Assembly (NCBI RefSeq): GCF_001639145.1
Contig: NZ_LROY01000001.1
Span: 808,501 to 872,500, forward strand
Direction: 5' to 3'
Source of the DNA: Microbulbifer sp. Q7
Lineage (GTDB): Bacteria; Pseudomonadota; Gammaproteobacteria; Pseudomonadales; Cellvibrionaceae
Length of the DNA stretch: 64,000 bases
Positions 2,892-48,766 of this stretch are shown one piece after another. The notes under the pieces were generated by a model. That model worked only from the letters and a program-made list of their open reading frames with translations. It was not told the origin of the DNA and did no database searches. A program made the position numbers and the translations under genes. Within the stretch, counting starts at the first letter, position 1; the number at the start of each line of letters is the position of its first letter.

Positions 2892-5800
2892 ATGAAACGA
2901 CTGGCGATTTTTTTCACCAATAAGTGGGTGCTGGGCCTGATTGGCCTGTGTGCGCTCTCGCTTTTGATCTGGTTTGGTGCCGATTACATAAAATTCGGCA
3001 GTGATAATGCCACCCTGCCTTCAGGTGCGCGTCTTACCATCATCGTGTTTATGTTTGCAACCTGGCTGGTGTGGAACCTGAGCCAGTGGCTGGTGGAGCG
3101 TCGACAGAACCAAGCGTTGATTCAAGGTATTGAAGAATCGCAGGAAGAAGTGGATCCCGACGAGGAGCGGAGCCGCGAAGAGCTGAATGCATTGTCGGAA
3201 CGTTTTCGCGACGCCATGCAGGTTCTGCGCAAGGCAAGGTTTAAATCCCAGCGTGGTAATGTTTCACTCTATCAGTTGCCCTGGTACATCATTATCGGCC
3301 CGCCTGGGTCCGGTAAAACCACTGCACTGGTCAATTCTGGCCTGGAATTTCCGCTCGCACAAAGTCACGGAAAAGAGGCGCTCGGGGGTGTAGGCGGCAC
3401 TCGGAATTGTGATTGGTGGTTCACCAATGATGCGGTATTGATTGATACCGCCGGTCGCTATACTACGCAGGACAGTCACCGGGTATATGATAATAATGCT
3501 TGGAAAGCCTTTCTGAATCTATTGCAGCGCTACCGCCGTCGCCGTCCGATTAATGGGGTGCTGGTCGCGATTAGCCTGCAGGACCTGATGGTGCAGACCA
3601 CCGAGCAACGCGTACATCAGGCCAAGACAATCCGCGCGCGTATTAATGATCTACAGCAGCAATTGGGGATTCGCTTCCCGATTTACCTCACCTTCACCAA
3701 GTGCGATCTCGTTGCAGGCTTCAGCGAATATTTCGATAACCTTTCCCAGGCTGAGCGGGAGCAGGTGTGGGGTATCAGCTTCCCAGAAGAGGCACATGCG
3801 GGGGCGGGAGCACCGCTCGATGACTTTGCTAGCGAGTTCCAGGCCTTGATCCAACAGCTCAATCAGAGGGTCCTTTGGCGTGTACATCAGGAGCGGAATG
3901 TCGAGAAGCGCGCTCTGTTACAGGGATTCCCTGCGCGCATGGAGAGCCTGCAAAACGTACTGTCCGATTTTGTGAGGCAGGCGTTCAGTGCCAACCGCTA
4001 CGACACGGTGCCCATGGTACGCGGTGTGTACTTTACCAGTGGCACACAGGAGGGAAGCCCGATTGACCGGATGATGGCCTCGGTGAGTTCCGACTTCGGT
4101 CTCGAACGGGATGTGGCGCAGCGATTCCAGGGGGTAGGCAAGAGCTACTTCCTACATCGTCTGTTAAAAGATGTGATATTCCCGGAAGCCGAACTGGTCG
4201 GCGTGAACCGCAAGGTTGAGCGCGTTACCCGTTGGCTGCGCGGTTCCGTCTATGTAGCGTCCGGCGCGGCTTTTGTCGGCGCTATATTCCTGTGGACTGG
4301 GAGCATCGCGCAGAACCATCGTTATATGGGAGAAGTCCGCAGCAATATCGCGTTTTACGAAGAAGCCAAGAAAAAACTGGGCAGTCGTAAACTCTCTCCC
4401 TCGCAAACCCTCGAATTGCTCGCGCCACTGAACGCCGCATCGAGCGTATATCAGAAAGAAGACCATCCCTGGCTCAACAATCTCGGTCTGTACGATGAGA
4501 GGGTCGATGCCGCGGCGGACCGCCTTTATCGCCAGCAGCTAGCACTGACGTTTTTGCCGGCCCTGCAGCGTTCCCTGGAACAGCGACTGTTAATGCTCGA
4601 CAGCGCGGATCCAGCACTACCCCAAACGCTAAAGACCTATTTGATGTTGTTTAATACAGACAGGCGCAGCCTCGAAGATCTAACGGCATATTTCAGCAAT
4701 GATTGGTCACAGACTCTGTCGGGCGAGGCAGGTAAGCAAGAGCAGATGATGACCCATCTGCAGCGGCTTTTTTCTTCACCGCTGCCGGAGGATCTTGAGC
4801 CCAATCAACGGGCCATTGCAACGGCTCGGCAGCAACTGCGCCGTATTCCCGTACCGCAGCGCCTGTACGCACAGATGTTGCGCAGCGATCTGGGGCAGAC
4901 ACAGATCGACCTCTACGGGGAAGTGGGTGGAGATACCGCACAACTGTTTGGCGTCGATCCTGGTGATAGCCGCTTCCATATTCCTTACCTGTATACCAAG
5001 GCTGGATATAAGGAGCTGAACTTCGATGCCGATTCACCGCTACTGGATCAGCTGGCAGACGAACGCTGGATATATGGTGGGGAGCTCAGTGGGGAAGATT
5101 TCAATGAAGATGACCGCAAGCGGCTTGGAGAGGACGTGAAGCGAATCTATCTCGGCGAATATCAACAGCGCTGGCAGCAGTTCGTATCGGGGTTCCCGAT
5201 CCAGCGGTTCCAGTCCACCTCACAAGCACTGGATATCTTGTCAAAACTTTCCGACCCTGTGTACTCGCCCCTGCTTGCCATTGTTGAAATCACTTCGGAC
5301 AACACATTACTGACCCCCCGACCTGAAGTGCCGTTGGACGCGAGTGGCGTACCGCTTCCGGTTTCCAGCACCACCCGTCGCCTCAGCACCGCGGCTGTCA
5401 GTGGTGCAGCTAGCAAACTGGCGGATAAATTTCAGCCGACCGTGGTCGACCTTCGGTTTGAGCCGCTGCAAAGGCTGACCCGCAGCGAAAAAAGCCGACC
5501 GGCCCGCGTACAGGATTATCTTTCCAGCATCACCCAGCTACAGGCCTATCTGGCGGAGATTGACAGTGGTGTGGATACCGATGAAGTGGCTTTCAACAAG
5601 GCCAGGGCTCGCTTCAATGGCGCCGGAGATGCAATCAAGCAATTGCGAGTGAAGGCCGCCAATGCTCCAGCACCGTTTGACCAGTGGCTGGAGGAGATTG
5701 CAGACAGCTCCTGGGGATTGGTGATGGCGAAAGCCAAACGCCACATCGACCGCGTATGGCGAGAGCAAGTATACAGTGTGTATAGCCGTAGCCTCGCGGA

Positions 5801-42974: not shown

Positions 42975-43071
42975 GCTCCGTCCCCGCCTTAGCGTCATGC
43001 CTGCGTTATTCCATCCGCGCGATTTTGCCGCTCCTTGTTGCCATGTCGCGCCATAAAAATCCCCCCTGATC

Positions 43072-43124
43072 GGCACCCATATTCTCGTTCTGTCCGGATT
43101 CGAGAAATCGGGTGCCTGTTTTTT
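43072..43124 (+). terminator. Terminator of rnr-rlmB
   Basis: A two-part stem, GGCACCC/GGGTGCC outside and TTCTCG/CGAGAA inside, is followed by TGTTTTTT. It lies 98 bases after the rlmB stop. It closes the backbone operon before the accessory block. Confidence 0.85.
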
Positions 43125-43197: not shown

Positions 43198-43223
43198 GGA
43201 ACCTTTTGTGGGTCTGATACGTG
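43198..43223 (+). promoter_or_regulatory. Candidate ECF-sigma promoter for the sigma operon
   Basis: GGAACC (43198-43203), 16 bases, then CGTG (43220-43223). This matches the general GGAAC...CGTC layout of many ECF-group promoters. It would give an mRNA leader of roughly 45 bases before GTG 43279, and so could be the autoregulated promoter. No other strong -10 is evident in 43125-43278, a pyrimidine-rich region without a gene. Confidence 0.45.
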
Positions 43224-43278
43224 TTAATCGGCAAATCTTGAGAATCGCTACTGTGGGAATGGGGAAAGGAGTAATGGG

Positions 43279-43845
43279 GTGTCCTTAATTGATTTCTTTC
43301 GCGGGAGGGCAGCAAAGGAAGACTGCTTTACCGCGCTGGTGCGACCGCACCTGCGTCTGATGCACCGCATGGCCTACCGCTGGACACAGGAGCGGGCGGA
43401 TGCGGAAGATCTGGTGCAGGATGTACTGACTCACCTGTTTCCCCGTGTTGATGAGCTGGCAACCGTGCAAAAGTTGGGGCCCTGGTTGATCAAAGTGCTC
43501 TACCGGCGCTACGTGGACTTGTACCGCCGTCGCGCCCGTTCTCCCGTTGATGAAACCGCGCCCTGCGTCAGTGATGACCAGTTTTTTCAGGAGCGTCTGG
43601 AAGACGAGCGCAATCATTACCAGCAGCTCGAGCTACAGCGCATGCTGAATCGAGCGCTGTTCACCCTGGATGAGTCCTGGCGCGATGTTGTGCTGTTACA
43701 TGACGTCGAAGGCTATACCGCGCTGGAAGTCGCCGAAATTCTCGATATCAATGTGGGCACGGTGAAGTCCCGGTTGCACCGGGCGCGAAAAAAACTGAAA
43801 TCCGTGCTCGAGCCGGGAACCATTGAAGCCTTCGCTGCGTGTTAA
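43279..43845 (+). CDS. ECF-type RNA polymerase sigma factor
   Basis: A 188-residue sigma-70 family factor with only regions 2 and 4, as in ECF sigma factors. Region 2 is at about 20-85 (HRMAYRWTQERADAEDLVQD, with DLVQDV in 2.2), and region 4 at about 115-175 (LLHDVEGYTALEVAEILDIN, then GTVKSRLHRARKKLK). It differs from housekeeping RpoE in the linker and N-terminus. GTG 43279 is supported by GGAAAGGAG 8 bases upstream. It is followed by a zinc-finger protein gene, the usual anti-sigma partner, and both stand inside otherwise conserved rlmB-rpsF synteny. Confidence 0.9.
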   Translation: MSLIDFFRGRAAKEDCFTALVRPHLRLMHRMAYRWTQERADAEDLVQDVLTHLFPRVDELATVQKLGPWLIKVLYRRYVDLYRRRARSPVDETAPCVSDDQFFQERLEDERNHYQQLELQRMLNRALFTLDESWRDVVLLHDVEGYTALEVAEILDINVGTVKSRLHRARKKLKSVLEPGTIEAFAAC

Positions 43846-43918
43846 CCCATAGAAAAATGCGCGCGCTATCTCAGGTACAAAACGAGTGGCGGAATCGCTC
43901 TCTGAAGGAAGGATGAAA

Positions 43919-44581
43919 ATGATGAACTGCTGTCAGGCTCGTCGCGAACTGGACTTGATGCAAAGGGAAAACAACAGCGTGCTGCTGAAGCACCTGCATC
44001 GTTGTAGTGAGTGCCGTGAATATGCCGAAGAGCTGCGTCTGGTAAATCTGCTGCGCACCATGCCAGCGCCCCAGCCGAGTGAATATTTCGAAGAGCGCGT
44101 GCTGAATGCGGCAATGCCGAAACAGCGCAATGCAGTGCAGGGTAACGTGCGCAAGTGGCAGCTGGCTACGGCCGCCAGTGTGTTGTTCGCGGTCATTGCG
44201 GCGCTGCCGCAGTGGCGGTCGTCCACGCCCACCGTTGAGGCATCGATGGTGCAGGCGTCAGCCTCAGAAGCGCTCCCGGTACGGGTCTCTGTGGATGCTG
44301 CACGCGCAATGGAAGGCGCTTTGATCAGTGTGTCTCTTCCGGAAAATCTCGCGCTTGAAGGATACGGTGACCAGCGGGAGTTGAGCTGGCGCACCAACCT
44401 ATACGCGGGCGCAAATCGGCTGACGCTGCCTGTGCGTGCGCGTACCGGGCAGCGCAATGAGATATTGATCCGCATTGAGCACGACGGTGCACGCAAAGAG
44501 TTTTATGTGCCGGTGGAGTTCCCCGCAAGCGGGGACTTACCAGCTAACCAGGGTGCGGCCGTGACGCCGCAAACGATCTGA
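43919..44581 (+). CDS. Zinc-finger anti-sigma factor (membrane)
   Basis: A 220-residue predicted anti-sigma factor. The N-terminal cytoplasmic domain has the ZAS signature H-x3-C-x2-C (HLHRCSEC) after an early CC pair, and helix residues EYAEELRLV. One membrane helix lies at about 80-98 (LATAASVLFAVIAALPQW). The periplasmic part (about 100-220) is a beta-rich domain with LPENLALEGYGDQRELSW and a C-terminal FYVPVEFP. ATG 43919 has AAGGAAGG 6 bases upstream; ATG 43913 is possible. By family logic it holds the neighbouring sigma factor inactive until a periplasmic cue, so the periplasmic domain is the likely sensor. Short gap to the sigma gene: one operon. Confidence 0.78.
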   Translation: MMNCCQARRELDLMQRENNSVLLKHLHRCSECREYAEELRLVNLLRTMPAPQPSEYFEERVLNAAMPKQRNAVQGNVRKWQLATAASVLFAVIAALPQWRSSTPTVEASMVQASASEALPVRVSVDAARAMEGALISVSLPENLALEGYGDQRELSWRTNLYAGANRLTLPVRARTGQRNEILIRIEHDGARKEFYVPVEFPASGDLPANQGAAVTPQTI

Positions 44582-44621
44582 CTTCCAACACAACGCTGAA
44601 AGACACAAATGAGGTTGAATT

Positions 44622-45224
44622 ATGAAAACGTTGAAAGCATGGATGGCGCTGGGCCTGATGGTTACCGCTCCGATCGGTGGCAATGCACTGGCCAATGAAG
44701 TCGGGGTGAATGCGGACCTGGATGTCGATGTTTCCGTGGTTGACGCGGAAGCCACCGCAGAAGACGCGATCAATGTGATCGAGCTGCCGGAGATGTCGAG
44801 CAGTTTCGCCGCGGAAGCCGCCGCTGAAGGTCTGGCGCAAGCCAACGCTGCGATTGCCGCCGGCAATGCCGATGCGGAAGCGGCGCAGGCGGAAATTCGC
44901 GCTGCCGGTAAGCTGAAGGCAGAAGAAATTGCGGCGCTGGTCGCCGATGCCATGGCGCGCAGTGAGGCGGCGATTGCCAATGCCAACGCGGCGGCCCTGA
45001 GCGCCCAGGAAAATGCGGCCGCTGCCCGCGAGGCCGCAGAAGAGGCCCTGAAGAACGCCCTGAGCGGTGCCGACTATGCGGGCTCCATGGCGGACGTGCG
45101 GGAGATCATCGACAACCTGCCGGAGGATGTGAAGGACCGCCTGCCTGTGGATCTGGAGGAACTGTTCGAGGGCATTCTGGACCTGGATCCCGCTGCGGCG
45201 GTGGATGCGGCAACGGACGGCTAA
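44622..45224 (+). CDS. Secreted Ala/Glu-rich helical protein, unknown function
   Basis: I do not recognise a family. The 200 residues begin with a signal peptide (about 1-25, ending NALA). An acidic stretch (DLDVDVSVVDAEATAED) comes next. From about 60 to 150 is a nearly continuous Ala/Glu helix with AAEAAAEG, AEAAQAEIRAAGK and AAAAREAAEEALK-type heptads, a likely coiled coil; the last 45 residues are Asp/Pro-rich (DNLPEDVKDRLPVDLEELFEG). No cysteine, no lipobox. It sits right after the anti-sigma gene and is likely regulated with it. It could be a periplasmic or surface rod or spacer partner for the downstream outer-membrane protein; this is inference. Confidence 0.6.
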   Translation: MKTLKAWMALGLMVTAPIGGNALANEVGVNADLDVDVSVVDAEATAEDAINVIELPEMSSSFAAEAAAEGLAQANAAIAAGNADAEAAQAEIRAAGKLKAEEIAALVADAMARSEAAIANANAAALSAQENAAAAREAAEEALKNALSGADYAGSMADVREIIDNLPEDVKDRLPVDLEELFEGILDLDPAAAVDAATDG

Positions 45225-45320
45225 CGATTGCAGAGGTAGCGGGTGAAGCCTGTTAGTGGATGATTCTTTTTAAGGGCTGGGCGCGGTGTGCCCGGCCTGT
45301 TGTGTTTGGAGGTATTGAAA

Positions 45321-46643
45321 ATGGAATTGACACCAAAATTGCTCGCCGGTTTGCTCTGGTGGGGCGCGGTAGCCGCGCCTGCCATTGCCGAAGAGCCGTT
45401 TGCCAATGGCACTGCAGCATTTAAGGGCGGGGACTACGAGCGCGCATTGGCGCACTTCGAGCAGGCCCGTCAGAGTGGCCAGCAGGGCCCCAGCCTGACC
45501 TATAACCTGGGGGTGACCTTGTTCAAGCTTGGGCGCTATCAGGCAGCGCAGGCACAGTTTCAGCAGCTGCTGGAAGATCCTGAGTGGAGCGAGGTGGCGC
45601 GCCTGCAGCTGGGGTTGATGGCGGAAAAGCAGGGCCGCCCGGTTTCCGCAGTGGGTTACTACCGGGATCTTACCGATAGCGAGTCCCCCAAACTGCGTCG
45701 CCTGGCGCTGATGCGTCTCTCGGCGCTGGCGCGGGCCCCGGGAGCGGAGCCTGCCCCGGAGCAGGATCCGGATCGTGGGTTGGCGCTGCTGAGCCTGACG
45801 TCGGGTTATGACAGCAACGCCTACTCGCTGCAGAATGAGCTGCTTACCGATGACTCGGTAGGCGCAGATACTTTCACCGAGCTGTTTGCCTGGGGTCAGT
45901 ACCGCCTGCGGGGGACCGCAGAAGACGGTTGGCGCCTGCACGGGTTTGCTTTCGGCCGTCGTTACAGCGATCTGGAGAGCTTGAACCTCACCAGTTTCAA
46001 TGCGGGTATTTCCCGGCATATGCCCTGGCAGGGTTGGCGGGTGGAGCTGGGGGGCGTCGCGGAGACCGCTTCCCTCGGTGGCGAGCGTGTCACCAATGAG
46101 TGGCGCCTTGTGGGGCGCATGCAGCAGGAGTTCGGCAATGGCGTGCTGACGCTGGCTTATCAGCCCAGTTATTTTAATGGCACAGAGACCTACCGTTACC
46201 TGGATGGCTGGCGCCAGCGATTTGAGGCGCGCTGGGCTGCGCCGTTGGCAATCATGGACATCGATGTGCTGTACCGCCTGGATTTGGACGACCGCCAGGA
46301 CCTGGCTACCGCAGATGACGGTTTTTACAGTTATTCGCCGCGCCGGCAGACCTTCGGGGTTGAGGCCGAACTGCCACTGTCGTGGGGCTGGTCGCTGCAC
46401 GCCGGCAGCCACTACCGTTTGAGCAACTACCGCGGCAACAACCGGTTGCAGGACAGCGACGGTGAGTTCAAGCAGCAGGCCCGGGAAGGCAATCGCCTAC
46501 GTAGTTGGATTGGGGCGGAGGTACAGTTGCTGCCACGCCTGCAGCTGGATGCGCGGGTAATTCGCACGAACAATGACGACAACTTCGATATCTACAGCTA
46601 CGAAAAAACCGAAGCCAGCCTGAGTGTGCGCTACGTCTTCTGA
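45321..46643 (+). CDS. TPR plus beta-barrel outer-membrane protein
   Basis: A 440-residue protein: signal peptide (1-23, ending AIA), TPR-like repeats at about 27-140 (FKGGDYERALAHFEQ, LFKLGRYQAAQAQFQQLL), then a barrel domain from about 155 with alternating strands (SLTSGYDSNAY, GLHGFAFGRR-like) ending in SLSVRYVF. The terminal Phe is the usual BAM signal. This TPR-then-barrel design recalls surface lipoprotein assembly modifiers (SLAM/DUF560), but I cannot assign it. ATG 45321 has GGAGG 8 bases before it; an upstream in-frame ATG at 45288 would place the signal peptide internally. A GAGGGGCGC/GCGCCCCTC hairpin lies at 46689-46708. Confidence 0.72.
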   Translation: MELTPKLLAGLLWWGAVAAPAIAEEPFANGTAAFKGGDYERALAHFEQARQSGQQGPSLTYNLGVTLFKLGRYQAAQAQFQQLLEDPEWSEVARLQLGLMAEKQGRPVSAVGYYRDLTDSESPKLRRLALMRLSALARAPGAEPAPEQDPDRGLALLSLTSGYDSNAYSLQNELLTDDSVGADTFTELFAWGQYRLRGTAEDGWRLHGFAFGRRYSDLESLNLTSFNAGISRHMPWQGWRVELGGVAETASLGGERVTNEWRLVGRMQQEFGNGVLTLAYQPSYFNGTETYRYLDGWRQRFEARWAAPLAIMDIDVLYRLDLDDRQDLATADDGFYSYSPRRQTFGVEAELPLSWGWSLHAGSHYRLSNYRGNNRLQDSDGEFKQQAREGNRLRSWIGAEVQLLPRLQLDARVIRTNNDDNFDIYSYEKTEASLSVRYVF

Positions 46644-47185
46644 GTTGGGTGCGGCTGCGTGGAACTGGTGTGGGGTGAAAAAGAGGTGGAGGGGCGCTGG
46701 CGCCCCTCTGCGTAGTGAGTCCTGATTGTTATTCTTCGATCCCTGGAGATTATTGTTATTTTGACTGGGATGTTTGTATCGGAATTCGTGATTCCGCTTA
46801 TTGTTATTGACCTTTGCAAGTAAGACGGGCGGGCGAGGGGCCCCCTCAAAACTTATTTCCGATTATTCGTGACTGATGCGGCGAGACCCGTCTCAGAGGA
46901 TTGCCCCCAGCACCCGGTGAGGGCGTTTCATAATTCGTGACTGCTGGGTCGACTCCCTTTATCCCTGGCATTGTGGCTCCCCGGCCGCAGGACCGGAGAC
47001 TATCTGCGCAACACCGAATCGATCAACTTGCAACCAGTACGCCGGACGCATAGAATACGCCGCCCGCAGAGCACCCGTCTGGGTTGCTGTTGCGCACTCC
47101 TTGCCTCACTGGGCGGCAGCTGTATCCAGACACGGATCTGGGCGGCGCCAAACCGGGAGGCTGTTTTAACCCGTAAGGAGCAAAA
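46644..47185. other. Intergenic region before rpsF
   Basis: About 540 bases without a convincing gene. It holds a 9-bp GC hairpin (46689-46708), a TA-rich stretch with repeated TTATTGTTATT-like words (about 46727-46805), and ATTCGTGACTG twice (about 46864 and 46932) with a third partial ATTCGTGATT at 46784. The promoter for the ribosomal operon lies at its end (47028-47056). The repeats are short and could be chance or remnants of a decayed repeat. Confidence 0.4.
47028..47056 (+). promoter_or_regulatory. Promoter of the rpsF-rpsR operon
   Basis: -35 TTGCAA (47028-47033), a 17-base spacer and -10 TAGAAT (47051-47056). The predicted leader of about 120 bases before rpsF leaves room for translational autocontrol by the S6:S18 complex, which is known in other bacteria, though I do not see its defined motif here. 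Confidence 0.6.
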
Positions 47186-47635
47186 ATGCGTCATTACGAA
47201 ATTGTATTCCTGGTTCACCCGGACCAGAGCGAGCAGGTGCCCGGCATGGTCGAGCGTTACACTGCGACCATCAAGGAAAGCGGTGGCGACGTTCACCGTC
47301 TGGAAGACTGGGGCCGCCGCCGTCTGGCTTACCCGATCAACAAGATCCACAAGGCTCACTACATTCTGATGAATGTTGAGTGTACTGAAGAAGCGCTGGC
47401 CGAACTGACCACCAACTTCAAGTACAACGACGCCGTGCTGCGCAATCTGGTGATCCGTGAAGACGAAGCGATCACCGAAGAAAGCCCGATCATGAAGGCC
47501 GAGAAAGAGTCCCGCGAGCGCAAAGCTGCGCGCGCAGAACGCTCTGAGCGTCGCGAGCGCGCCGACCGTGAAGATTCTTCTTCCGAAGGCGCCGAGGAAG
47601 ACAAGTCTTCCGACACCACTGAAGACGAAGAGTAA
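47186..47635 (+). CDS. rpsF: 30S ribosomal protein bS6
   Basis: bS6 (149 residues) binds the 30S platform together with bS18. The N-terminus [20 protein letters not shown] and the segment [14 protein letters not shown] are invariant features. The C-terminal tail is a long, highly charged extension ([20 protein letters not shown] then [11 protein letters not shown]), longer than the E. coli tail that is poly-glutamylated by RimK. AAGGAG lies 8 bases before the ATG. rpsR follows after 12 bases. Confidence 0.98.
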
Positions 47636-47917: not shown

Positions 47918-48766
47918 GTGCGCGCTATCGCTGAATTTGCCATGCGATCGCGCTTACGCGCGGTAATCCTCACTCTGGTGGGTATTCCGCTGATCAGCCC
48001 CGCCGTGCTGGCACTGGTGGGGTTGCGCCGCGGCAGTAGTGACGGCCTGTTTGTACTGGCCTGGGCACTGTTGCCGGTGGTTGCCGCCGCCGGAGCGGGC
48101 TATATGTCGCCGCTGATGGCCGGCATGGCAATCACCCACTTTGTGGGGGTGCTGGCCGGAGCGCTGGTGTTGCGCGCAACACGGGCCTGGAGCTGGGCGC
48201 TGGTGGTACTGACCATCGCCACCAGCCTCGGCATAGTGGTGACCTCGCAGGTGTCCGGCGGACTGCTGGACAACCTGATGCAGGCGGTCAATGAGGCCGC
48301 CGGTGGGGCGACCACCCCGGAGGCACAGCAGGTGAGCAAGGCGTTCGACAGCGAAGCGCAGGCCACCGGATACCTGACCTGGGTATCGGTGATCAGCGCA
48401 ACCCTGGCGCTGCTGCTGGGGCGTTGGTGGCAGGCATTGCTGTATAACCCCGGCGGTTTTCGGGAAGAGATGCACGCATTGCGTATGCCTCTACCGGTTG
48501 CTGCCGTCGGTATGTTGCTGTGGGTGTACTGCCTGGTCAGTGAGCACTTTGTGTTCTGGGGTGCGGTAGCCGCATTCCCCATCATGGTGGCGGGTATTTG
48601 CCTGATCCACTGGTTGGTAGCCCGCAAGGGCTGGGGACGCGGCCCACTGATTGCCATGTACATTACGCTGGTAATCGCCGCACTGCCGCTGGCCGGGTTC
48701 CTGTGCGGACTGGCCCTGATCGATAGCTGGATTGATATTCGCGCGCGCTCGAGCAACGACCGCTGA
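47918..48766 (+). CDS. Polytopic membrane protein (DUF2232-like)
   Basis: A 282-residue protein with about seven or eight hydrophobic helices (for example [72 protein letters not shown]). In Pseudomonas an equivalent membrane gene lies at the same place between rpsR and rplI; the family (DUF2232) is thought to be linked to transport or membrane biogenesis, with no solid function. GTG 47918 is used; the ribosome-binding site is weak. No motif shows a substrate. Confidence 0.72.

What the first reader, a model, noticed from the sequence alone, without database searches (positions are those of the whole stretch)
43198..46650. ECF sigma - anti-sigma - Ala-rich secreted protein - TPR/beta-barrel block inserted in conserved rlmB-rpsF synteny
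In Pseudomonas, rnr-rlmB is followed by rpsF-rpsR-membrane gene-rplI-dnaB, as also here, but this genome has about 4 kb of extra genes between a strong rlmB terminator and the rpsF promoter. The block has its own candidate ECF promoter, a ZAS anti-sigma with a periplasmic domain, a secreted 200-residue Ala/Glu coiled-coil protein and a TPR-plus-barrel outer-membrane protein. It may be a self-contained envelope system in which the sigma factor controls a barrel and its helical partner. I know no named system of this composition.
Basis: partly seen in the sequence, partly recalled or inferred. Interest (0 to 1): 0.7.

Follow-up and report, generated by a model that had tools for sequence, protein, structure and literature searches.

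The report
Self-regulated TPR-barrel module with variable partner
Many marine and environmental bacteria carry a four-gene cassette in which a dedicated gene switch appears to control an outer-membrane pore and a fast-changing secreted partner protein that the pore may export; the cassette seems undescribed.

Summary
Between rlmB and rpsF of a Microbulbifer genome lie genes for an ECF sigma factor, a zinc-type anti-sigma, a secreted Ala/Glu-rich protein and a TPR plus 14-stranded beta-barrel protein. They are a real unit. In 37 Microbulbifer genomes the last two genes occur in exactly the same 24. Of 40 loci found across Gammaproteobacteria by the anti-sigma alone, 37 have sigma, anti-sigma and TPR-barrel on one strand, away from the rlmB-rpsF slot. 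The third protein is the striking part: an apparent signal peptide, a conserved N-terminal motif (LDVTMxVV…IELP), then a hypervariable low-complexity tail. A promoter GGAACY-N16-CGTG lies upstream of sigma and, in 62 of 86 modules, again at the 3' end of sigma just before anti-sigma, with spacer 16 and in all three codon phases. Sigma therefore very probably drives the whole cassette and, in the window's genome, little else. The TPR-barrel resembles type XI secretion (Slam/NilB) proteins in architecture but does not reach that family's sequence cut-off. Best explanation: a self-regulated outer-membrane export or display system with a variable cargo. Conservation and promoters are well supported; export is inferred. 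My open-access literature searches found no description.

The parts
43068..43120 (+). hairpin followed by a T run after rlmB (upstream boundary; likely rlmB terminator)
   Evidence: -23.6 kcal/mol, z -4.3, 0 of 200 shuffles as good; it has a long branched loop, so the simple terminator scan does not list it
43198..43225 (+). ECF-type promoter P1 (GGAACC-N16-CGTGTT) upstream of sigma
   Evidence: one of only two exact matches in the 64-kb window; site of this type upstream of sigma in 18 of 24 Microbulbifer modules (the 24 include the window and its near-identical relative L080)
43279..43845 (+). ECF sigma factor, 188 aa, GTG start
   Evidence: PF04542 1.3e-11, PF08281 2.5e-15; TIGR02937 5e-28
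43816..43843 (+). ECF-type promoter P2 (GGAACC-N16-CGTGTT) overlapping the 3' end of sigma, before anti-sigma
   Evidence: equivalent site in 62 of 86 modules with spacer 16; codon phases 33/25/4
43913..44581 (+). anti-sigma factor, 222 aa: HxxxCxxC zinc motif, one membrane helix, periplasmic beta-sandwich
   Evidence: alignment; model (mean pLDDT 81); DUF3379 2.8e-5, below cut-off
44622..45224 (+). secreted partner protein, 200 aa: signal peptide (by eye), conserved motif LDVDVSVVD...AINVIELPE, Ala/Glu/Asp-rich tail; mature part without Cys or Trp
45274..45298 (+). GC-rich hairpin between partner gene and barrel gene (possible attenuator)
   Evidence: z -3.0 with flanks; hairpin with z below -2 in 37 of 75 intergenic gaps examined
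45321..46643 (+). TPR plus 14-stranded outer-membrane beta-barrel protein, 440 aa
42216..42974 (+). rlmB (upstream flank)
   Evidence: ORF; synteny
47186..47635 (+). rpsF (downstream flank)
   Evidence: ORF; synteny

Best explanation
A self-regulated envelope cassette. The ECF sigma factor is held by its membrane anti-sigma, whose periplasmic Ig-like domain is the sensor. When released, sigma transcribes itself from P1 and anti-sigma, partner and barrel from P2, with little else in the genome. The partner is exported to the periplasm by Sec. The TPR-barrel, built like a type XI (Slam/NilB) outer-membrane protein, takes the partner by its constant N-terminal motif through the periplasmic TPR domain and passes it through, or displays it on, the outer membrane; the hypervariable charged or Ala-rich tail is the surface-acting part. 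A hairpin between partner and barrel genes would keep partner (cargo) in excess over channel. Partner backing up in the periplasm, or an unoccupied barrel, is the likeliest signal to the anti-sigma. Shown computationally: the gene set, its conservation, the promoter pair, the predicted protein architectures, the constant-head/variable-tail partner. Inferred: that this sigma reads P1 and P2, partner-TPR binding, export, attenuation, and the nature of the signal.
For: Co-conservation across Gammaproteobacteria. Identical presence sets of partner and barrel genes, 24 of 37 genomes. Partner motif model trained on Microbulbifer modules alone finds the middle ORF in 33 of 64 other loci and 0 of 4070 other ORFs; iterated, 53 of 64 and still 0 of 4070. 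Paired promoter with a 16-nt spacer. In G023 and G033 an extra promoter site lies between barrel and a second partner gene; in G017, where gene order is changed, the site lies upstream of the partner. Partner and barrel persist without sigma and anti-sigma in G008, G021, G032, so the pair has its own job. Second small genes in G023 and G033 and, by eye, in L163, L164, L171 fit a cargo role. Tandem modules diverge as whole units for all four genes. TPR plus 14 strands; profile relatedness to SlipAM-type proteins over the full length. Hairpin between partner and barrel genes in 37 of 75 gaps.
Against: The window protein gave no SlipAM match, and only 5 of 74 relatives match SlipAM at E <= 0.01, against 35 of 74 for the generic BBP2_2 porin model. 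Against the clearest Slam-type protein (L194) the barrel alone scores only 28.6% probability, and with a two-row alignment holding a doubtful second ORF 88.0% full length and 5.1% barrel alone. The partner has no C-terminal beta-barrel, which unites predicted cluster 1 T11SS cargo. The promoter, binding and export steps have no experimental data. Part of the iterated motif result is not held out. P2 is absent from 24 of 86 modules by this pattern, and the zinc motif of the anti-sigma is lost in 7 of the 18 Microbulbifer rows of the alignment. 11 of 64 loci give no partner-model hit. The hairpin is missing from several Microbulbifer members.
Confidence: 0.5

Rival explanations
1. Sensor circuit rather than export system: the partner is an envelope-stress probe. 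Its constant beta-like motif normally sits in the TPR-barrel; when barrel assembly or the outer membrane fails, the freed motif binds the anti-sigma beta-sandwich and releases sigma.
For: The motif is the widely shared part of the partner. The anti-sigma has a periplasmic beta-sandwich with weak likeness to macroglobulin-type domains, conserved together with the module. In the window's genome only 3 exact promoter sites exist and 2 are in the module, so the circuit mostly controls its own parts.
Against: Partner and barrel persist without sigma and anti-sigma in 3 of 24 Microbulbifer genomes. Extra partner genes per barrel and long repetitive tails are unnecessary for a probe.
Confidence: 0.25
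2. Exopolysaccharide export: the TPR-barrel is a small BcsC/PgaA-like polysaccharide channel and the partner an accessory periplasmic or matrix protein.
For: Top two Foldseek hits are E. coli cellulose synthase subunit C chains; TPR plus barrel is shared; BBP2_2 matches 35 of 74 relatives.
Against: By eye, no synthase or glycosyltransferase adjoins the unit in the loci whose ORFs I printed (L103-L106, L081, L083, L094); the other loci were not checked for this. Model strand count is 14, whereas PgaA was set apart as 16-stranded. BcsC alignments have TM 0.37 and rmsd 19, i.e. not one rigid match.
Confidence: 0.1
3. A passive porin with a co-expressed periplasmic or surface polyelectrolyte (cation buffer or metal sponge); no export of the partner through the barrel.
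Against: Does not explain the constant N-terminal motif or the TPR domain; 13 of 53 tails are not net acidic, e.g. Lys-rich in L129.
Confidence: 0.12

Closest known systems
Type XI secretion outer-membrane proteins (Slam/NilB, DUF560, PF04575 SlipAM)
   Same: Periplasmic TPR domain followed by a barrel of 14 strands; adjacent gene for a secreted protein; profile-profile relatedness over the whole length to SlipAM-type proteins L197 and L198, weaker to L194.
   Different: No SlipAM match and TPR_Slam below cut-off; dedicated sigma and anti-sigma; partner lacks the C-terminal beta-barrel of cluster 1 T11SS cargo and is mostly low-complexity. Strong SlipAM proteins exist separately in 3 Microbulbifer genomes among the 96 relatives searched.
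Exopolysaccharide channels BcsC / PgaA
   Same: TPR plus outer-membrane barrel.
   Different: Short TPR domain, 14 not 16 strands, no synthase genes beside the unit in the loci printed.
ECF sigma with class I zinc-type anti-sigma (RpoE/RseA style; RseA recalled)
   Same: Sigma region 2 and 4 only, adjacent anti-sigma with one membrane helix and HxxxCxxC motif, promoter with AAC / CGT cores upstream of sigma.
   Different: Second promoter embedded in the 3' end of the sigma gene; periplasmic beta-sandwich; constant partner/barrel operon.
Cell-surface signalling FecI-FecR-FecA (recalled; passages of one ECF review seen)
   Same: An outer-membrane barrel encoded with a sigma and an anti-sigma.
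   Different: No TonB-dependent receptor among the four genes; sigma appears self-regulated, unlike FecI.

Membership tests
Type XI secretion OMP (SlipAM/DUF560) | PF04575 SlipAM match above curated cut-off | tested here: not met
   no SlipAM match listed for the window protein up to E 10; 5 of 74 relatives match at E <= 0.01, best 4.6e-5
Type XI secretion OMP (SlipAM/DUF560) | N-terminal TPR domain of about 140 aa plus 14-stranded barrel | tested here: met
   model: helices 26-137, then 14 long strands from 153 to 439; definition from passages of PMC8406197
Type XI secretion OMP (SlipAM/DUF560) | Profile relatedness to SlipAM proteins | tested here: inconclusive
   L194 94.1% full length but 28.6% barrel only (88.0/5.1% with a doubtful second row); L197 99.1/97.5%, L198 99.5/99.1%; TamA and reversed decoys at most 0.3%
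Type XI secretion OMP (SlipAM/DUF560) | Neighbouring cargo with C-terminal beta-barrel domain | tested here: not met
   partner is low-complexity, no domain match; cargo definition from abstract and passages of PMC12282271, which also says cluster 3 OMPs rarely co-occur with such cargo
Type XI secretion OMP (SlipAM/DUF560) | Moves cargo across the outer membrane | not testable with these tools
   needs an export assay
BcsC/PgaA polysaccharide channel | Polysaccharide synthase genes in the unit | tested here: not met
   none, by eye, among ORFs adjoining the unit in the seven loci printed; the remaining loci were not checked
BcsC/PgaA polysaccharide channel | 16-stranded barrel | tested here: not met
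   one search gives 14 strands; 16 for PgaA
ECF sigma factor | Only sigma regions 2 and 4, about 190 aa | tested here: met
ECF sigma factor | Adjacent anti-sigma and self-promoter with AAC and CGT cores | tested here: met
   in silico; criteria from passages of PMC8103513
Zinc-type class I anti-sigma | HxxxCxxC motif in the cytoplasmic domain | tested here: met
   met in the window protein; absent from L089 copy 1, L090, L092 copy 1, L093, L097, L100, L101; the two Cys are nearly invariant (90% or more) in the 77-member alignment

The most novel reading that the evidence does not exclude
A new, widespread outer-membrane secretion or display system of Gammaproteobacteria: a 14-stranded TPR-barrel exporter dedicated to intrinsically disordered, fast-evolving cargo that is recognised by a constant N-terminal tag (LDVTMxVV...IELP), with the export state reported back by the same tag to a dedicated anti-sigma/ECF pair that controls only this cassette.
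Probability: 0.33. Interest if true: 0.85.

Novelty: new variant of a known kind. Interest (0 to 1): 0.7.

Why it matters
About one in ten of the Gammaproteobacterial genomes sampled (38 of 369) carries the strong anti-sigma match, 38 of 40 such loci fetched have the TPR-barrel nearby, and I found no description. It links a type XI-like barrel to a partner with a constant head and hypervariable tail, and gives an exact promoter signature with which regulon, signal and cargo can be tested directly. If export is shown, it widens outer-membrane protein secretion to disordered cargo and offers a compact model for how export status is reported to transcription.

Tried and rejected
Plasmid carriage: tblastn of the anti-sigma in 72,556 plasmid records gave no match. 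Orphan partner genes in Microbulbifer: a search with the partner profile in 48 genomes listed 36 places in 31 genomes; the genomes with two places are exactly the tandem (G011, G019, G031) and double-partner (G023, G033) ones, and I saw none away from a barrel gene (for G1131 and G1136 I judge adjacency only from matching coordinates). Regulon beyond the module: 110 exact promoter matches in 45 genomes against 60 for the backward control (recounted from the table); by my count about 52 of the 110 lie in modules, so matches elsewhere are at background, except possibly L182. Apparent GGAAC...CGT enrichment 'upstream of anti' with loose spacers 15-19 could have been a coding effect of conserved sigma region 4; the tighter test (spacer 16, three codon phases) speaks against that for the reported sites. 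A polysaccharide-channel reading was weighed and put low. BFVD gave generic porin and TPR proteins. The 50-row Foldseek and VIA lists show no Slam entry that I could recognise; that absence says nothing. Anti-sigma fold: only weak matches, best E 2e-3, many to complement/macroglobulin-type domains. Outside Gammaproteobacteria: in 398 genomes of the phylum, full-length anti-sigma matches occurred in 4 genomes, all of the window's own order; the other matches at E <= 1e-10 cover only the first part of the profile, to position 131 at most. DUF3379 does not occur in the five papers listed.

Mistakes of mine: one search failed (missing output file, I think a wrong option) and was repeated, where three 'other' hits turned out to be partner ORFs with an upstream start (L122, L155) or next to a contig end (L125); one search reclassified ORFs by stop position. 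The profile comparison used a wrong ORF for L196; the 'slam3' set held a doubtful L195 ORF and no L196, so I rely on the single-sequence runs. Many 'upstream' promoter counts outside Microbulbifer are probably underestimates because the longest ORF start was used. 'At unrelated positions' had not been tested for loci L122-L181 when first drafted; one search tested it (0 of 64 loci hold one of seven rnr-to-dnaB genes; five of the stretches are under 6 kb).

Literature searches: (open-access library only); the main ECF re-classification paper (DOI recalled) was not held, so an ECF group number, and possibly a note on this neighbourhood there, may exist.
Full report
WHAT IS THERE. The window lies in a Microbulbifer genome (the named near relatives of the barrel protein are all Microbulbifer). 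Between rlmB (ends 42974) and rpsF (starts 47186) are four genes on the plus strand: an ECF sigma factor, an anti-sigma factor, a 200-residue secreted Ala/Glu/Asp-rich protein ('partner') and a TPR plus barrel protein.

IS IT A UNIT? In 37 Microbulbifer genomes (36 relatives plus the window's own) the full-length barrel gene was found in 24 (a 25th match, G015, is a TPR-only match) and the partner gene in 24 (which examined 48 genomes and found 31); on the shared 37 the two sets are identical. With labels dealt at random this has probability 3e-10, ignoring relatedness. The anti-sigma was found in 21 of the 37; the three barrel-bearing genomes that lack it are G008, G021 and G032, and these also lack a close sigma (best matches there have 30-34% identity, like other ECF paralogues). 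In the loci fetched for the other 23 barrel-bearing genomes the module (in G008, G021 and G032 only partner and barrel) sits between rlmB and rpsF (in G023 the upstream flank is a contig end with an rlmB-like fragment). G011, G019 and G031 have two modules in tandem, and G017 has the order partner-barrel-sigma-anti-sigma. G034 has a second, divergent module elsewhere (L104). Of the 13 genomes without the module, 11 have 0.2-2.2 kb between rlmB and rpsF, G010 has 5.4 kb with other ORFs, and in G004 the two genes lie on different contigs. So this is a flexible slot rather than a disrupted operon.

BEYOND THE GENUS. A profile of the anti-sigma (22 rows) searched in 369 genomes drawn across the class gave matches at E <= 1e-20 in 38 genomes, the window's own included (my count). 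I fetched 40 of the 43 such places outside the window's genome. Sigma is adjacent in 40 of 40 and a barrel relative is present in 38 of 40, in 37 of them on the same strand; L125 is cut by its contig end, L150 has no barrel gene in the stretch, and L146 has it on the other strand; in L153 the barrel ORF is broken in two and in L152 other ORFs lie before it. A barrel profile searched in 390 genomes of the order gave 35 matches at E < 1e-27 (my count); I fetched 20 of these as new loci and 19 of the 20 have sigma and anti-sigma adjacent, the exception being the weakest match, L162. In these 60 loci and L103-L106, none of seven genes of the rnr-rlmB / rpsF-dnaB neighbourhood was found in the stretch held. 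In 398 genomes across the phylum no full-length anti-sigma match was found outside the window's order. Trees of sigma, anti-sigma and barrel agree: Mantel r 0.71-0.75 over 84 modules, against at most 0.14 in 500 permutations; in all four gene trees the three first copies of the tandem genomes group together and so do the three second copies, support 0.957 or more. Shared species history contributes to the Mantel values, but the tandem copies show that modules diverge as sets.

THE PARTNER. Nearly every gap between anti-sigma and barrel that I read holds a small ORF with a hydrophobic N-terminus, a short motif like LDVTMxVV, usually a second bit like IELPE, and then a tail that is Ala/Glu-rich, Asp/Glu/His repeats, Arg/Pro/Glu-rich or Lys-rich. 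A 38-residue model trained only on the Microbulbifer modules recovered the middle ORF at E <= 0.01 in 33 of 64 other loci (L103-L106, L122-L181; L104 is the divergent second module of a Microbulbifer genome) and none of 4070 other ORFs; after iteration 53 of 64 and none of 4070 (only the first figure is held out). Of the 11 loci without a hit, L150 and L162 lack part of the module, several others show a similar motif by eye, and L147 does not clearly do so. Tails of the 53: median 90 residues, acidic residues outnumber basic ones in 40, Cys in 1. Partner numbers vary: G023 and G033 have a second partner gene behind the barrel, and L163, L164 and L171 have two small secreted ORFs (by eye).

THE PROMOTERS. 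The window holds exactly two matches to GGAACY-N16-CGTGTW: 43198-43225, upstream of sigma, and 43816-43843, inside the last codons of sigma, just before anti-sigma. Across 86 modules a site GGAACY-N16-CGTG is present near the 3' end of sigma in 62. When spacers of 10-22 were allowed, 62 of the 64 matches there had exactly 16, and the site falls in codon phase 0, 2 and 1 in 33, 25 and 4 cases, so it is unlikely to be a by-product of sigma's coding sequence. Within Microbulbifer all are in phase 0 and the sigma ends in GT......C, so there a protein constraint cannot be separated from a promoter. Upstream of sigma there were 35 matches with spacer 16 against 2 with any other. Over all loci, both strands, spacer 16 has 113 matches and no other spacer more than 6. 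In G017 the site lies upstream of the moved partner gene, in G023 and G033 a further site lies between the barrel and the second partner gene, and in G021, which lacks sigma, one remains upstream of the partner. Genome-wide, the window's genome has 3 exact sites, 2 of them here. That the site is read by this sigma is inferred from its position and the known AAC/CGT cores of ECF promoters (passages of PMC8103513).

A hairpin lies between partner and barrel genes in the window; in 37 of 75 gaps a hairpin scores below z -2 against 20 mononucleotide shuffles each, several with a T run. This would fit more partner than barrel, as for cargo and channel, but it is only suggestive, and it is missing from L093-L095, L097 and L099-L102 among others.

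MECHANISM. I favour an auto-regulated export or display cassette for the variable partner (confidence 0.5). The sensor-probe reading (0.25) shares most of the evidence; persistence of partner and barrel without sigma and extra partner genes speak for export. Direct tests are listed under next steps.

NOVELTY. The parts are of known kinds; the combination, the constant-tag/variable-tail partner and the embedded second promoter are, as far as the searches reach, not described. From the papers I saw search listings, the abstract starts printed there, and found passages of PMC8103513, PMC12282271 and PMC8406197; a search in PMC7406223 found none of the terms.

Noticed in passing
L182 (G034:C59), site at 3097-3124, gene 3150-3989: A perfect promoter match away from the module, upstream of a 279-aa secreted protein ending in RPEKPERPEKPARPERP-type repeats; possible extra member of the sigma's regulon.
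   Followed up: partly
rlmB-rpsF gap in L107-L111 and L114: Microbulbifer genomes without the module carry other ORFs in the same slot (by eye: alpha/beta hydrolase-like, 2OG-Fe oxygenase-like, PEP mutase-like, repeat protein), so the slot may be a small hot spot.
   Followed up: partly
L089 copy 1, L090, L092 copy 1, L093, L097, L099-L102: Anti-sigma proteins that lost the zinc-binding Cys motif yet keep membrane and periplasmic parts beside a sigma gene (L099 and L102 seen by their first residues only).
   Followed up: no
L081 and L094, between rlmB and the module: Three further ORFs (363-376 aa, 205-222 aa, 475-489 aa with a CIECHG or CVECHG motif) lie in the same slot in two genomes.
   Followed up: no
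L194, L195, L196 (G006, G1134, G017): Strong SlipAM (type XI secretion) matches occur in three Microbulbifer genomes, separate from this module.
   Followed up: partly
window 47918-48766: The membrane gene between rpsR and rplI has no Pfam or NCBIfam match above cut-off although it is found in every module-bearing Microbulbifer locus.
   Followed up: no
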